Source of the DNA: Candidatus Gastranaerophilales bacterium
Lineage (GTDB): Bacteria; Cyanobacteriota; Vampirovibrionia; Gastranaerophilales; Gastranaerophilaceae
Direction of reading: 5' to 3'
DNA length: 38,024 bases
Assembly: GCA_944322675.1 (NCBI GenBank)
Contig: CALUPO010000016.1
Span: 1-38,024 of the forward strand
Numbering within the stretch: position 1 is the stretch's first letter; the number at the start of each line of letters is the position of its first letter. The translations under genes and the position numbers were made by a program. Of the stretch, positions 1 through 37,746 are shown piece after piece. The notes under the pieces are model-generated. The model was given only the letters and a program-made list of their open reading frames with translations, made no database searches and was not told where the DNA came from.

Positions 1-400
1 CTCAAAGCACTTCGCCTATCGCACTTCGTGCTGTCGGCTTTGGCTTTTTTCCGCCTGAGGTATCCGCCCTCATTTCAATCGGGCGTCTTTCCTACGGCGG
101 GAATTAGTAATATATGGGGGAGGCAAAGCCTCCCCCATATCCCCCACACGAAATTTAACGTCCTCCGGGTGGAGAAACTGTGTTTCACGATTTTTTTTAA
201 AATTTACTTAAAAATATTTTAACGTCCTCCGGACGGGGTTACTGTCTTGGATTTCGTCCCCCTCTCCTATTTTAGCGTGATGACCAGGGTGAGGATGATT
301 CTAATGCAGTTTTGCTTCACAATTTTTTAAAAATTAAATAGTTTGAGAATAAAATTAAAAGTTTAAGAGTAAAGTCCAGTATAAAAAATACAATAAATCA
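1..400. repeat. Repeat island A: dispersed GC-rich hairpin repeats, no credible gene
   Basis: This stretch is richer in G+C than the surrounding genes and is built from modules that recur at 26180-26380 and 36950-37250. The modules include a hairpin at 112-140 (13-bp arms, AAA loop, core GGGGGAGGC/GCCTCCCCC), a smaller CGCCC/GGGCG hairpin near 65-84, and two copies of the GTCCTCCGG box near 169 and 222. A degenerate GGTGAGGATG module lies near 290. The short ORF crossing it has no ribosome binding site and follows the repeat, so I do not call it a gene. The last 70 bases grade into AT-rich sequence ahead of the dnaX stop codon. The function is unknown. Confidence 0.85.
112..140. repeat. Perfect GC-rich hairpin within repeat island
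   Basis: Arms 112-124 and 128-140 are perfect 13-bp inverted repeats around an AAA loop. The same hairpin with a longer G/C run lies at about 26291-26323. It has no following T tract in either direction, so it resembles a REP-like palindrome more than a standard terminator. Confidence 0.8.
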
Positions 401-25378: not shown

Positions 25379-25765
25379 GCTTAAACTCAAAACCTATTTA
25401 AAAATATATTAATGTCCTCCAAGTGGGATTACTTTGTTTATTTTTTTAAAATTTACTTAAAATTAATTTAATGTCCTCCGGACGGGGCAACTTTTACGCA
25501 AAAGTTGCACAAAACCTCAACCCACTTGGTTTTCGTATATTCACACGACTCAACTTGAGCCTCCTTAACTCGTGCACTTTGTGCACTCAAACAAAAGGAG
25601 GCTTTGACAACGTTTCGTCTGTGACTATTACTCAAACCTGCGTATGGGGTGGCATTGTTGATCTCATTCTCTAACTTTTTTATTCCATCCTCTCTCTTTT
25701 TAGCTTGAGGGCGGGGGTGAGGGTGACATCTCATGCCCCCTCTCTAAAGAGGAAGAGGGGAACAA
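25379..25765. repeat. Repeat island B, left part
   Basis: This part follows the pilin-S74 stop codon. It contains two GTCCTCC boxes (about 25411 and 25471), one full 128-bp repeat (25521-25648), and a GGGCGGGGGTGAGGGTG module with a CCTCTCT/AGAGG hairpin (about 25690-25757). Reading frames on either strand simply follow the repeat modules and recur with them elsewhere, so none is called as a gene. Confidence 0.85.
25521..25648 (+). repeat. 128-bp dispersed repeat, copy 1
   Basis: It is identical over all 128 bp to 37343-37470 and 37747-37874. It holds a stem AGCCTCCTT (25558-25566) / AAGGAGGCT (25595-25603) enclosing a smaller GTGCAC...GTGCAC hairpin, and ends CCTGCGTATGGG, the inverted form of a box found in a neighbouring module (for example 37972-37985). 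A diverged, partly inverted relative lies at about 26565-26745. Confidence 0.95.
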
Positions 25766-25771
25766 AAAGTC

Positions 25772-25800
25772 TTGAAAATATACAAAAAAAATGATATAAT
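25772..25800 (+). promoter_or_regulatory. Consensus sigma70 promoter of the structured RNA
   Basis: TTGAAA (25772-25777), a spacer of exactly 17 bp and a perfect TATAAT (25795-25800). It is one of the best promoters in the window and no protein-coding gene follows it. Confidence 0.8.
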
Positions 25801-25806
25801 AAAAAT

Positions 25807-26020
25807 AGGGTGAGCGGTTTGAGACCCGCTCTTTGAAAACCCTAATAGATTTATCGTAGCGCTAGTATTATTAGTAAAATCAATATTAGCGCTTTTACAC
25901 TAATTACGATAACCACTTTTGACATCACCTTCTTTCATAGCATCGATTAAATCTTAAAATTATCCGTTTCGTGCTATCTTAGAAAGCTTAGTCATAGGGT
26001 TTACCCTATTTTATTTTATT
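25807..26020 (+). ncRNA. Unidentified structured RNA of about 210 nt
   Basis: The segment runs from the predicted start of a consensus promoter to a rho-independent terminator and has no reading frame. It can fold into successive stems. Stem 1 is TAGGGT (25806-25811) / ACCCTA (25839-25844) around GAGCGG/CCGCTC. Stem 2 is TTATCGTA (25851-25858) / TACGATAA (25905-25912) around AGCGCTAGTATT (25858-25869) / AATATTAGCGCT (25882-25893), which has one wobble pair. Stem 3 is ATAGCA (25937-25942) / TGCTAT (25972-25977). A terminator hairpin with TAGGGT/ACCCTA ends it. Because TAGGGT and ACCCTA each occur twice, the 5' end can instead pair with the 3' end. I do not recognise tmRNA, RNase P, SRP or T-box motifs. 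6S-like RNA is possible but not supported by a motif. Confidence 0.7.
25994..26020 (+). terminator. Intrinsic terminator of the structured RNA
   Basis: ATAGGG/CCCTAT (25994-25999 and 26004-26009) with a TTTA loop is followed by a T-rich run, TTTATTTTATT. It defines the 3' end of the RNA at about 26015-26020. Confidence 0.8.
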
Positions 26021-26054
26021 ATACTGAAAATATATATAATTGTAAAGTTTTTTA

Positions 26055-27023
26055 ACTTTTCGCCCCATCCCTTTTTTAGCTTGATGGTTGGGGTGAGGGT
26101 GATTTTAATGCAGCTTTGTTTCACATTTTTTCAAGAATTATTTAAAATTAATTTAATGTCTTCAAGACGGGGTTACTCTGTTTAACTTCGCCTGTCGTAC
26201 TTCGTGCTGTCGGCTTCGGCTTTTTTCCAGCCTGTGGTATCCGCCCTCATTTCATTCGGGCGTCTTTCCTACGGCGGGAATTAGTAATTTATGGGGGGGG
26301 AGGCAAAGCCTCCCCCCCCCATATCCCCCCACACGAAATTTAATGTCCTCCGGACGGGGCAACTGTATTTATTTTTTTTCAAAAAATTAAACAGTTGTAG
26401 AATAAAGTCAATAAATGTAACCCATACGCAGGCACGAACAATTATCACTCTCTTGAATTTCCTTCAAGCTCAAAGCACTTCGCCTATCGCACTTCGTGCT
26501 GCCGGCTCCGGCTTTTCGCTCCCCGGGACTTCGCCCGTCCGGAAATTCGCTTTACGAAACAACAACAGGCAGCCTTCTGTTTGAGTGCGAAGCACGAGTT
26601 AAGGCTGCTTGGGTTGAGTTTAGTGAGAATGTGAGTGCCAAGTCGGGTTACGATTTTGGGCACTTTGTCCACACAAAGTGCCTCCGCCTGAAAGGCTTTA
26701 TATTTTTATTATTATTTAAAGACTATTATTCAAACCTGCATATGGATTGCCATTGTTGACCTCTTTCTCCAATTTTTTTATTCTCCCTCACACTAAAAAG
26801 AGGAAAGGGAGAAATAATACAAGATGGTTTCCACATCCGTAGGACGTTAATATATTTAATTTGTTGAAGTTTAAACAATTTTGTCACCCTCACCCATACC
26901 CTCACGCTTATAAGGGATAGGAGGAAATAACCCAAAACAGTTGCTCCATCTGAAGGGCATTAAAACATTGGAACTTATATACAACTTTATACAAAGTTCA
27001 GTGTAAACTGATATATAAAGCCC
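26055..27023. repeat. Repeat island B, right part, ending in a terminal inverted repeat
   Basis: This part is made of the same modules as the window ends. It has a GGGGTGAGGGTG module (about 26090), GTCTTCAAGACGGGG and GTCCTCCGGACGGGG boxes (26158, 26346), and the G8/C9 hairpin at about 26291-26323. The module with AACCCATACGCAGG is near 26419, and the junction matching both window ends is near 26469. An inverted diverged copy of the 128-bp repeat follows (about 26565-26625), then further inverted boxes (26852, 26950). It ends at the 24-bp terminal inverted repeat 27000-27023. Frames of 60-97 codons here are repeat-borne and I do not call them genes. Between 27024 and 27110 I see nothing but A/T-rich sequence. 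Confidence 0.85.
27000..27023 (-). repeat. 24-bp terminal inverted repeat, right end of island B
   Basis: Read on the minus strand this is GGGCTTTATATATCAGTTTACACT, in two parts GGGCTTTATATAT and CAGTTTACACT. It matches the left end of the island at 36889-36912 and both arms of 2306-2357. The adjoining 50 bases inward also match the inward flank of 36913. Confidence 0.75.
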
Positions 27024-30313: not shown

Positions 30314-30388
30314 TTAATTAAATTTTCTTTTTACTTTTAAAGGGGAAGCAGGGTAATCCCTGCTCCCTTGAATATTATTGATTATCAT
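30314..30388 (-). pseudogene. Truncated start of another copy of the membrane paralogue
   Basis: Immediately at the stop of the gene 30385-31584, a new ATG opens with the same 18 residues as both full copies (MIINNIQGSRDYPASPLK). It then diverges and stops after 24 codons. The DNA match extends from the ATGA overlap through about 60 bases. It looks like the leftover of a further tandem copy lost by deletion. Confidence 0.75.
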
Positions 30389-31584
30389 AGTAAAACCTTA
30401 GGAATTAAATTTTCGATATAATTTTTTAAATTAGAATTTTTTTTATCAACTACTTGTTTTAAACCAATAAATGAGCTTTCTAGTTTTATAATATTATCTT
30501 TTAAACTAGGTAAAGTTATATTTCTACCTTTATAATTTATAGTTTCAGTTTTTTCCATAACTTCATCCCATTTTGCTTTTGCTTTACCAGACAACATTTC
30601 ATATAAACTTTTAAAATAATTAACTTTGGGAATTCGTCTTGGGTCATGCCCTTGTTGACCATAACATTTTGGAGCTTTCACTTCACCGGTTATAATCTTT
30701 ACAAAATTTGGCAATTTTTCATTTGCTTCTTTTTTTAATCTATCATGCCAGAAAGCTCCTAGTTTGTTCATATATTCAAAATATTTCTTTTCATTTTCGG
30801 TCATGTCTTTTTGAGGTTTTTGAGGTTTAAATTCTTCAAGCATTTTGGCACTAAAATTGGCATAAAGTAATGGACGCACAAAATTTATCATATTATGCTT
30901 TTCTTCAACACTTTTATCCGAGTAAAGAAATTGTCTTGTATTATTTGCAAGCATATATAATCTTAGGGTTTCAGCATCAACAACATCATCGTTTGGATTC
31001 TTTAACACTTCACTTCTGATGACATCAAACTCATTATCTTTATCAAAATATTCACTTCTTAGTTTTAAATATTCAATAAAAGTTTCTTTTTCATTAGATT
31101 TTGATTCAACATTTCCATTTTTAAGTAATTGTTGTTTTCTTCCCAAAAGCTGTGGTACAAGTGTTTTCATTTCATATAATTGAAAATCATTCTTAGCTTC
31201 AAATGGTGCAAGCACATTTGGCACAATTTTTACCATTTCCCATTTTGGCTTAAATTCTTTTAAAGTTATGTTTACAAAATGTTTTTGCATATTTTTTTCA
31301 AGATCTTTGACTTGTTCTTGAGGATTAAGCTTTGACTTATCAATCGTTTTTATAACTTCGCTTGTTTTTGTTTTTTTTGAACATGCCCAGACAACTAAAC
31401 CAATTACAACGCTTGCAACAGCTGTTAAACCAACACCAAGCCATGTTTTTTGTTCATCTGTCATTCCTTTACTTTCACCGGTTGGTGATTTAATGTTTTC
31501 ATACGCTTTAAAGCTTTTTTGCTTATTTATTTTTAAAGGGGAAGCAGGGTAATCCCTGCTTCCTTGAATATTATTGATTATCAT
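30385..31584 (-). CDS. Single-pass membrane protein, paralogue 2 of the cluster
   Basis: The 399-residue protein has a short cytoplasmic or signal-like N-terminus (about 1-45, with SFKAYENI) and one membrane segment at about 48-68 (LGVGLTAVASVVIGLVVWAC). A large domain follows (about 140-399) that matches the C-terminal part of the kinase-like genes: VVDAETLRLYMLANNTRQFLY, YANFSAKMLEEFKPQKP, and the final repeat-like coiled region ending NYIENLIPKVLL. It lacks the kinase domain. The first 330 or so residues are identical to paralogue 3 except one position, whereas the last 70 instead resemble the end of paralogue 4 in part. The start overlaps the paralogue 3 stop (ATGA). The function is unknown; it may anchor or regulate the kinase-like partners. 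Confidence 0.85.
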   Translation of the reverse strand: MIINNIQGSRDYPASPLKINKQKSFKAYENIKSPTGESKGMTDEQKTWLGVGLTAVASVVIGLVVWACSKKTKTSEVIKTIDKSKLNPQEQVKDLEKNMQKHFVNITLKEFKPKWEMVKIVPNVLAPFEAKNDFQLYEMKTLVPQLLGRKQQLLKNGNVESKSNEKETFIEYLKLRSEYFDKDNEFDVIRSEVLKNPNDDVVDAETLRLYMLANNTRQFLYSDKSVEEKHNMINFVRPLLYANFSAKMLEEFKPQKPQKDMTENEKKYFEYMNKLGAFWHDRLKKEANEKLPNFVKIITGEVKAPKCYGQQGHDPRRIPKVNYFKSLYEMLSGKAKAKWDEVMEKTETINYKGRNITLPSLKDNIIKLESSFIGLKQVVDKKNSNLKNYIENLIPKVLL

Positions 31585-31690
31585 ACTAAAACCTCAGAAA
31601 TTAAATCTTCAATATCCTTTAATATTTTACATTTTAAATTAGAATTTTTTTCTTCAACTACTTTTTTTAAAGCCATAAATTTAGCTTCGA
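30591..31690 (-). repeat. Long direct repeat, downstream unit
   Basis: It corresponds base for base with 31799-32898 (constant offset 1208). The block 30591-31584 shows a single substitution that I could find, and the match runs on across the gene junction into the 3' end of the upstream gene (31585 to about 31690) with a few differences. It is a recent tandem duplication of one gene-sized unit. Confidence 0.9.
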
Positions 31691-32792
31691 ATGTTCTAAT
31701 TGTTTCTTTTAATGCGGGTATTTTAAAAGTCCTTCCCCTAATAACTTCTTTTTCTTCTTGTTCCATAACTTTATCCCACTTTGCTTTTGCACCATCTGAC
31801 AACATTTCATATAAACTTTTAAAATAATTAACTTTGGGAATTCGTCTTGGGTCATGCTCTTGTTGACCATAACATTTTGGAGCTTTCACTTCACCGGTTA
31901 TAATCTTTACAAAATTTGGCAATTTTTCATTTGCTTCTTTTTTTAATCTATCATGCCAGAAAGCTCCTAGTTTGTTCATATATTCAAAATATTTCTTTTC
32001 ATTTTCGGTCATGTCTTTTTGAGGTTTTTGAGGTTTAAATTCTTCAAGCATTTTGGCACTAAAATTGGCATAAAGTAATGGACGCACAAAATTTATCATA
32101 TTATGCTTTTCTTCAACACTTTTATCCGAGTAAAGAAATTGTCTTGTATTATTTGCAAGCATATATAATCTTAGGGTTTCAGCATCAACAACATCATCGT
32201 TTGGATTCTTTAACACTTCACTTCTGATGACATCAAACTCATTATCTTTATCAAAATATTCACTTCTTAGTTTTAAATATTCAATAAAAGTTTCTTTTTC
32301 ATTAGATTTTGATTCAACATTTCCATTTTTAAGTAATTGTTGTTTTCTTCCCAAAAGCTGTGGTACAAGTGTTTTCATTTCATATAATTGAAAATCATTC
32401 TTAGCTTCAAATGGTGCAAGCACATTTGGCACAATTTTTACCATTTCCCATTTTGGCTTAAATTCTTTTAAAGTTATGTTTACAAAATGTTTTTGCATAT
32501 TTTTTTCAAGATCTTTGACTTGTTCTTGAGGATTAAGCTTTGACTTATCAATCGTTTTTATAACTTCGCTTGTTTTTGTTTTTTTTGAACATGCCCAGAC
32601 AACTAAACCAATTACAACGCTTGCAACAGCTGTTAAACCAACACCAAGCCATGTTTTTTGTTCATCTGTCATTCCTTTACTTTCACCGGTTGGTGATTTA
32701 ATGTTTTCATACGCTTTAAAGCTTTTTTGCTTATTTATTTTTAAAGGGGAAGCAGGGTAATCCCTGCTTCCTTGAATATTATTGATTATCAT
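31581..32792 (-). CDS. Single-pass membrane protein, paralogue 3 of the cluster
   Basis: The 403-residue sister of paralogue 2 has the same N-terminus, one membrane segment (about 48-68) and shared domain. The only difference in the first 330 residues is Glu for Gly in QQEHDPRRIP. The last 70 residues are different: EQEEKEVIRGRTFKIPALKE is unique to this copy, while the terminal KCKILKDIEDLISEVLV matches paralogue 4 exactly. The coding start overlaps the paralogue 4 stop by ATGA, and the paralogue 2 start overlaps its own stop the same way, so translation is coupled along the operon. No ribosome binding site of its own was seen, which fits re-initiation. The role is unknown. Confidence 0.85.
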   Translation of the reverse strand: MIINNIQGSRDYPASPLKINKQKSFKAYENIKSPTGESKGMTDEQKTWLGVGLTAVASVVIGLVVWACSKKTKTSEVIKTIDKSKLNPQEQVKDLEKNMQKHFVNITLKEFKPKWEMVKIVPNVLAPFEAKNDFQLYEMKTLVPQLLGRKQQLLKNGNVESKSNEKETFIEYLKLRSEYFDKDNEFDVIRSEVLKNPNDDVVDAETLRLYMLANNTRQFLYSDKSVEEKHNMINFVRPLLYANFSAKMLEEFKPQKPQKDMTENEKKYFEYMNKLGAFWHDRLKKEANEKLPNFVKIITGEVKAPKCYGQQEHDPRRIPKVNYFKSLYEMLSDGAKAKWDKVMEQEEKEVIRGRTFKIPALKETIRTFEAKFMALKKVVEEKNSNLKCKILKDIEDLISEVLV

Positions 32793-36998: not shown

Positions 36999-37342
36999 GG
37001 GGTGAGGGTGGATTTATTAGTTTAACTTCAATAAATTAATCGCTTTTTAATTCCAACCTTAAGTGTATCTTAAACACTCATTTTTTTAAAAATTAAACAG
37101 TTGTAGAATAAAGTCAATAAATGGTAACCCATACGTGGCACGAACAATTATTTTCAAAAAATTATTTAAAAATATATTTATGTCCTCCAGACGGGGTTAC
37201 TGTCTTGGATTATGCAGCGTTCGGAACTATGCAACTCCGTTTCACAATTTTTTTAAAATTGTTTCACTCCGTTCAGTTCCTCACAATCAGGCAAAGCCAA
37301 CTGCAAATCCGCTTGAAGCCAAAAGTAACCAAAACCTTTCAA

Positions 37343-37470: not shown

Positions 37471-37746
37471 TTGTCATTGCTGATCTCATTCTCCGACTTT
37501 TTTATTTTCCACTTTCTTTTTTTAGCTTAAGGGCGGGGGTAAAAGTCTTTTCCTATCTCCCTCTCCCTAAAGGGAGAGGGTTGGGGTGAGGGTGGCAAAA
37601 TTGTTAAATCTCAACAAATTAAATATTTTAACGTCCTCCGGACGGGGCAACTTTGTGTGGACAAAGTTGCACAAAACCATACCCTAAAGGGCATCCTCCC
37701 TTGTACGACTCAGCCTTTTAGGCATCGTCTACAAGAGGAGCTACAA

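What the first reader, a model, noticed from the sequence alone, without database searches (positions are those of the whole stretch)
25772..26020. Unidentified structured RNA with consensus promoter and terminator
TTGAAA-17-TATAAT leads into about 210 nt of non-coding sequence with three nested stems and an intrinsic terminator. The 5' and 3' ends each hold TAGGGT and ACCCTA twice, allowing two mutually exclusive pairings (local hairpins or a long-range closing stem). It lies alone in an island of repeats, and I recognise no tmRNA, RNase P, SRP or T-box signature. It may be a housekeeping RNA diverged beyond recognition (6S?), a switch, or a repeat-linked regulatory RNA.
Basis: partly seen in the sequence, partly recalled or inferred. 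Interest (0 to 1): 0.72.

Follow-up and report, generated by a model that had tools for sequence, protein, structure and literature searches.

The report
Palindromic-gene toxin–antitoxin family of gut bacteria
The unidentified structured RNA is most likely the RNA antidote of a previously undescribed, very widespread family of tiny self-poison genes in uncultured gut relatives of cyanobacteria; the poison gene sits hidden on the opposite DNA strand and its own coding sequence is a near-perfect RNA hairpin.

Summary
The + strand RNA (promoter 25772-25800, transcript about 25807-26017) is the full-length antisense of a convergent minus-strand gene. That gene has its own promoter (26046-26018), a Shine-Dalgarno site (25934-25926) and a 21-codon ORF (25916-25851) for a hydrophobic peptide, (M)VIVISVKALILILLIILALR. 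This is the layout of a type I toxin-antitoxin locus, most like E. coli Ibs/Sib. A covariance model finds relatives in 133 of 288 genomes of the same family and in other families of the order, often in tandem. The toxin frame is open in 47/47 aligned copies with pN/pS 0.36. The antitoxin promoter is near-consensus in 79 of 83 copies. The mRNA 5' and 3' ends covary (permutation z about -9) and the SD is predicted sequestered in the 5' UTR, much as in Helicobacter AapA. Unusually, the toxin ORF itself is a covarying RNA hairpin, far beyond what the peptide requires (mean z -4.8; ordinary gene pieces 0; E. coli Ibs/Ldr/TisB +0.4 to -1.9). 6S and all Rfam identities fail. Transcripts, toxicity and neutralisation are untested. 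I judge it a new type I TA family with a new structural twist.

The parts
25772..25800 (+). antitoxin promoter TTGAAA-17-TATAAT
   Evidence: in 79 of 83 copies the best promoter here scores at least 10 of 12; 12 of 166 shuffled stretches do
25807..26017 (+). antisense (antitoxin) RNA, about 211 nt, complementary to almost the whole toxin mRNA; ends inferred from promoter and terminator
25994..26020 (+). antitoxin terminator ATAGGGTTTACCCTATTTTATTTTATT; its hairpin is the 5' hairpin of the toxin mRNA on the other strand
26018..26046 (-). toxin promoter TTTACA-17-TATAAT
   Evidence: weaker and more variable across copies than the antitoxin promoter
25801..26011 (-). toxin mRNA, about 211 nt; ends inferred
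25995..26007 (-). 5' segment AGGGTAAACCCTA: local hairpin, or pairs with the 3' end (long-distance interaction)
   Evidence: covariation across 83 copies; G-U 10 against A-C 0 on the toxin strand
25926..25934 (-). Shine-Dalgarno AAGAAGGTG (AAAGGAGGTG in most copies), predicted paired with CTTTCT upstream in the 5' UTR
25851..25916 (-). toxin-like ORF, GTG start, 21 codons, (M)VIVISVKALILILLIILALR; coding sequence forms an RNA hairpin (AGCGCTA...TAGCGCT)
25801..25844 (-). toxin mRNA terminator TAGGGT-TTTCAAA-GAGCGG...CCGCTC-ACCCTA-TTTTT; its outer arms are the alternative partners of the 5' segment

Best explanation
This is a type I toxin-antitoxin locus. The minus strand encodes a 21-aa hydrophobic, membrane-type peptide, the presumed toxin. 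Shown in silico: two convergent promoters, SD plus ORF under coding selection, hundreds of related copies, covarying 5'-3' pairing, covarying hairpins inside the ORF, and predicted sequestration of the SD by the 5' UTR. Inferred: the full-length toxin mRNA folds into a closed, translation-inert form (long-distance 5'-3' helix plus SD:anti-SD helix); the strong antisense promoter keeps the RNA antidote in excess; sense-antisense pairing blocks the SD and exposes the duplex to RNase III; when the antitoxin falls or the mRNA is trimmed at its 3' end, the peptide is made and acts on the membrane.
For: Minus-strand promoter, SD and ORF at fixed positions. 133 of 288 genomes of the same family carry copies, and the order has more. 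SD plus short hydrophobic ORF was found in 87 of 98 distinct copies. The toxin frame is open in 47/47 copies with pN/pS 0.36; the two other sense frames are stopped in 46-47 of 47. The antitoxin promoter is near-consensus in 79/83 copies, the toxin promoter weaker, as expected if the antidote is in excess. LDI covariation: native -11.9 against swapped -10.0 kcal/mol, permutation z about -9, reached in none of 20,000 permutations. SD unpaired 0.19 against 0.30 with shuffled UTR, lower in 68/83 copies, partner in the 5' UTR. ORF hairpin covariation: 48 cells changed on both sides against 15.0 +/- 3.0 shuffled and 3-11 slid. Same antisense-over-ORF layout, in tandem pairs, at ibsA/sibA, ibsB/sibB, ibsD/sibD and ibsE/sibE of E. 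coli K-12.
Against: No transcript, toxicity or neutralisation data are available. The peptide matches no Pfam, NCBIfam, PHROGs or PADLOC family, though such short peptides are poorly detected. The window copy has a weaker SD (AAGAAGG) and a GTG start, so this copy may be weakly translated. The SD stays paired in the fold even when the local 5' hairpin is forced, so how the mRNA would be switched on is not explained by these folds. The ORF-hairpin pairing shows no strand preference (18 G-U against 22 A-C), so it cannot be assigned to mRNA rather than antitoxin. Related copies are not independent, which inflates the permutation statistics.
Confidence: 0.87

Rival explanations
1. A small membrane peptide with a normal, non-toxic function whose synthesis is tuned by a cis-antisense RNA.
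For: Toxicity is untested; pN/pS 0.36 fits any conserved small protein.
Against: Multi-copy tandem arrays, patchy presence (133 of 288 genomes), strong predicted translational shielding and a stronger antisense than sense promoter are typical of type I toxins rather than housekeeping peptides.
Confidence: 0.08
2. A short non-autonomous mobile element (MITE/REP-like) with terminal inverted repeats; promoter and ORF are incidental.
For: Dispersed copies, inverted ends (AGGGT...ACCCT), location in a repeat-rich island.
Against: Coding selection and conserved SD, two promoters, 5' and 3' ends that covary as RNA with G-U but no A-C on one strand, and synonymous sites shaped by RNA structure. The copies in the own genome are 76-88% alike over the full query, too divergent for very recent transposition.
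Confidence: 0.03
3. A stand-alone structured housekeeping or regulatory RNA (diverged 6S, switch).
For: Stable fold and strong promoter and terminator.
Against: No Rfam match; no 6S in the genome; up to 10 divergent copies per genome and absence from many genomes; coding frame on the opposite strand.
Confidence: 0.02

Closest known systems
Ibs/Sib of Escherichia coli (type I TA)
   Same: About 20-aa hydrophobic peptide ORF lying wholly inside an antisense RNA gene on the other strand; tandem pairs of loci in intergenic regions.
   Different: No Pfam or Rfam match to the Ibs/Sib families; different peptide motif ([ST]EKALxIILLIILALK); antisense about 210 nt and covers almost the whole mRNA; Ibs ORFs are not significantly self-complementary (z -0.7 to -1.9).
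AapA/IsoA of Helicobacter (type I TA)
   Same: 5'-3' long-distance interaction closing the toxin mRNA and SD-sequestering hairpins with an upstream anti-SD (PMC6733600); several chromosomal copies.
   Different: No sequence relation found; here the SD is paired by the 5' UTR (78% of partner probability) and hardly by the ORF or 3' end, and the whole ORF is a hairpin. AapA3 has an SD-sequestering hairpin embedded in the ORF.
MsoT1/MsoA1 of Microcystis aeruginosa (candidate type I TA)
   Same: The only type I TA candidate described from the cyanobacterial phylum (PMC12390103).
   Different: MsoT1 is predicted to have two transmembrane helices, against one roughly 15-residue hydrophobic stretch here; homology was not tested because its sequence was not retrieved.
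Hok/Sok (type I TA)
   Same: Metastable hairpin and a translation-inert full-length mRNA (described in PMC6733600).
   Different: Different peptide; from general knowledge Hok is about 50 aa with an overlapping mok reading frame. No such frame was sought here.

Membership tests
Type I toxin-antitoxin system (class) | small (<60 aa) hydrophobic membrane-type peptide ORF with SD | tested here: met
   21 aa in the window; SD plus ORF in 87/98 copies; pN/pS 0.36
Type I toxin-antitoxin system (class) | antisense RNA gene with its own promoter overlapping the toxin mRNA | tested here: met
   promoters and terminators in silico; transcripts themselves not seen
Type I toxin-antitoxin system (class) | peptide is toxic when made without the antitoxin | not testable with these tools
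   needs an expression assay
Type I toxin-antitoxin system (class) | antisense RNA represses the toxin by base pairing | not testable with these tools
   complementarity is complete by position; repression needs experiment
Ibs/Sib | sequence membership of Ibs peptide or SIB_RNA family | tested here: not met
   no Pfam or NCBIfam hit; SIB_RNA 14.2 bits, gathering score 56
Ibs/Sib | toxin ORF contained in the antisense RNA gene | tested here: met
AapA/IsoA | 5'-3' long-distance pairing of the toxin mRNA | tested here: met
   covariation, z about -9; G-U 10, A-C 0
AapA/IsoA | homologous AapA peptide | tested here: inconclusive
   no Pfam, NCBIfam or PHROGs family matched, but AapA was not compared directly
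6S RNA (RF00013) | covariance-model match | tested here: not met
   no match in the window or genome
tmRNA / tRNA | ARAGORN match | tested here: not met

The most novel reading that the evidence does not exclude
A lineage-wide type I toxin family whose coding sequence is itself a conserved RNA palindrome. Selection on RNA pairing, in mRNA, antitoxin or both, sets synonymous codons and even forces paired amino-acid changes (F-S-I-T-E, F-T-I-S-E, F-A-I-S-E), so the same helices serve as a translation brake and as matched docking hairpins for sense-antisense recognition.
Probability: 0.45. Interest if true: 0.8.

Novelty: new variant of a known kind. Interest (0 to 1): 0.71.

Why it matters
Type I toxin-antitoxin loci were reported only from Proteobacteria, Firmicutes and Tenericutes, plus one 2025 candidate in Microcystis (PMC12390103). 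This family would place them, in large numbers, in the non-photosynthetic gut lineage next to cyanobacteria, where searches based on known toxins could not see them. The palindromic ORF is a clear case of RNA structure shaping both codons and residues of a protein, and it gives a searchable signature (self-complementary mini-ORF under a full-length antisense RNA) for finding type I loci in other phyla.

Tried and rejected
Rfam at gathering and at E<=10: only chance-level matches. tRNA/tmRNA: none. 6S in the own genome: none. Pfam, NCBIfam, PHROGs, PADLOC for the peptides: none. Assigning the ORF hairpin to one strand by G-U/A-C asymmetry was inconclusive. An antisense reading frame is also open in 47/47 copies; I saw no SD before it in the window and it is expected from the palindrome, so it was not pursued as a second gene. 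Papers on toxin-antitoxin loci in Melainabacteria or Gastranaerophilales: none relevant found.

Full report
WHAT IS THERE. No Rfam family, tRNA or tmRNA is found. The minus strand was not read in stage one. It carries TTTACA-17-TATAAT at 26046-26018, a 5' hairpin AGGGTAAACCCTA, an SD AAGAAGGTG at 25934-25926, and a GTG ORF 25916-25851 encoding (M)VIVISVKALILILLIILALR, followed by a terminator ending at about 25801. The two predicted transcripts, both about 211 nt, overlap almost completely.

RELATIVES. A blastn search found four further matches in the same genome and matches in 10 to 11 other genomes. In nearly all, the opposite strand has AAAGGAGGTGAT or a close variant, a start codon and a 20-25 aa hydrophobic ORF ending in IILALK or similar. 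A covariance model from 21 copies then gave 133 of 288 genomes of the same family and 29 of 41 genera. It also matched other families of the order and nothing outside the order among the matches listed for the class and phylum samples. Genomes carry up to 10 detected copies, often in tandem about 300 bp apart. The window's own genome has seven, including a second subfamily of 33-36 aa peptides. A degenerate codon pattern run over 84,980 genomes hit 47 stretches. The named ones are Candidatus Gastranaerophilales or Melainabacteria; one is labelled Heliobacteriaceae (its match coordinates equal those of G121, placed in the same family as the window), and the rest are unnamed MAGs. The same-genus genome G001 has a 38,557-base contig matching CALUYS010000016.1, a Gastranaerophilales MAG, so I infer the window is Gastranaerophilales too.

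CODING. In 47 aligned copies the toxin frame is open in all, with pN/pS 0.36; the other two sense frames are stopped in 47 and 46. SD plus ORF was found in 87 of 98 distinct copies; the ORF picker preferred hydrophobic ORFs, so this figure is descriptive, and at least two picks are visibly wrong starts.

PROMOTERS. The best promoter on the antitoxin side scores at least 10/12 in 79 of 83 copies. On the toxin side 46 of 83 reach 10, and 12 of 166 shuffles do.

RNA STRUCTURE. (i) Pairing of the 5' segment with the start of the 3' terminator is better in native than in swapped combinations (-11.9 against -10.0 kcal/mol, z about -9, none of 20,000 permutations). Types include AAACCC/GGGUUU, AAGCCC/GGGCUU, AUACCC/GGGUAU, AUGCCC/GGGCAU and AAAGUC/GACUUU. 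In 48 canonical copies this helix has 10 G-U and 0 A-C cells on the toxin strand, which favours the mRNA as the folded molecule. (ii) The SD is predicted largely paired (unpaired 0.19 against 0.30 with shuffled UTR), with 78% of partner probability in the 5' UTR. (iii) The ORF is a hairpin. With peptide held fixed and codons redrawn, the real sequences are more stable by a mean z of -3.3 (family codon usage) or -4.8 (window gene usage). Ordinary gene pieces give -0.01, and E. coli ibs, ldr and tisB give +0.4 to -1.9. Two helices covary: 48 cells changed on both sides against 15.0 +/- 3.0 in shuffles and 3-11 in slid controls. Residue pairs move with the helix: S-I-T, T-I-S and A-I-S in the N-terminal hairpin. 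Strand cannot be assigned for this hairpin (18 G-U against 22 A-C). The window copy is among the weaker ones on the mRNA strand (z -0.5 by family usage, -2.5 by window gene usage) and stronger on the antitoxin strand (z -2.7).

MECHANISM. Best reading: a type I toxin-antitoxin locus with constitutive full-length antisense RNA, a closed inert mRNA (5'-3' helix plus SD:anti-SD helix) and a membrane peptide. The layout is that of Ibs/Sib, where the ORF lies inside the antisense gene and loci come in tandem pairs. The closed-mRNA logic is that of AapA/IsoA, where a 5'-3' interaction and metastable hairpins block translation until 3' trimming (PMC6733600). Toxicity, antisense repression, trimming and RNase III action are inference. 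In the window copy the SD remains paired in the predicted fold whether or not the 5' and 3' ends are joined, so the activation step is the least certain part.

NOVELTY. No family library or paper in the held collection describes it. The literature places type I loci in three phyla plus one Microcystis candidate (PMC12390103). Most subscription papers and T1TAdb itself could not be searched.

LIMITS. All evidence is comparative. Copies are related and unevenly sampled, so the permutation figures overstate significance. Transcript ends are inferred from promoter and terminator positions.

Noticed in passing
window 218-239, 25467-25488, 26152-26173, 26339-26360, 37176-37197, 37627-37648: Dispersed repeat TTTAATGTCCTCCGGACGGGGY, six copies in the window, none expected by chance; nature unknown.
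   Followed up: partly
window 25623-25685 and 26721-26783; 26185-26224 and 26477-26516: Direct repeats of 63 nt (86% alike) and 40 nt (90% alike) flanking the locus in the repeat island.
   Followed up: no
G000:C9:34636-34762, C9:35174-35306, C32:10335-10490 (L122, L120, L119): A second subfamily of the peptide in the same genome, 33-36 aa with two hydrophobic stretches and a shared C-terminal part (N[TN]KEL...IL.II.AL), also in tandem.
   Followed up: partly
L086:2465-2634, L068:1549-1712, L044:1213-1386: Copies with the same RNA frame (5'-3' pairing, SD, terminator) but different peptides such as MNRKIIKSALVVLDALLKLVIIYL and MSKRMIKTVITVIITVLEIILKRM, also self-complementary at RNA level.
   Followed up: partly
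G000:C1:208602-208725 (L004/L121): A copy in the own genome in which no short ORF of the expected kind was found; probably decayed.
   Followed up: no
window 30385-31584 and 31581-32792: Two neighbouring minus-strand ORFs of 399 and 403 aa that are nearly identical over most of their length, a recent tandem duplication.
   Followed up: no
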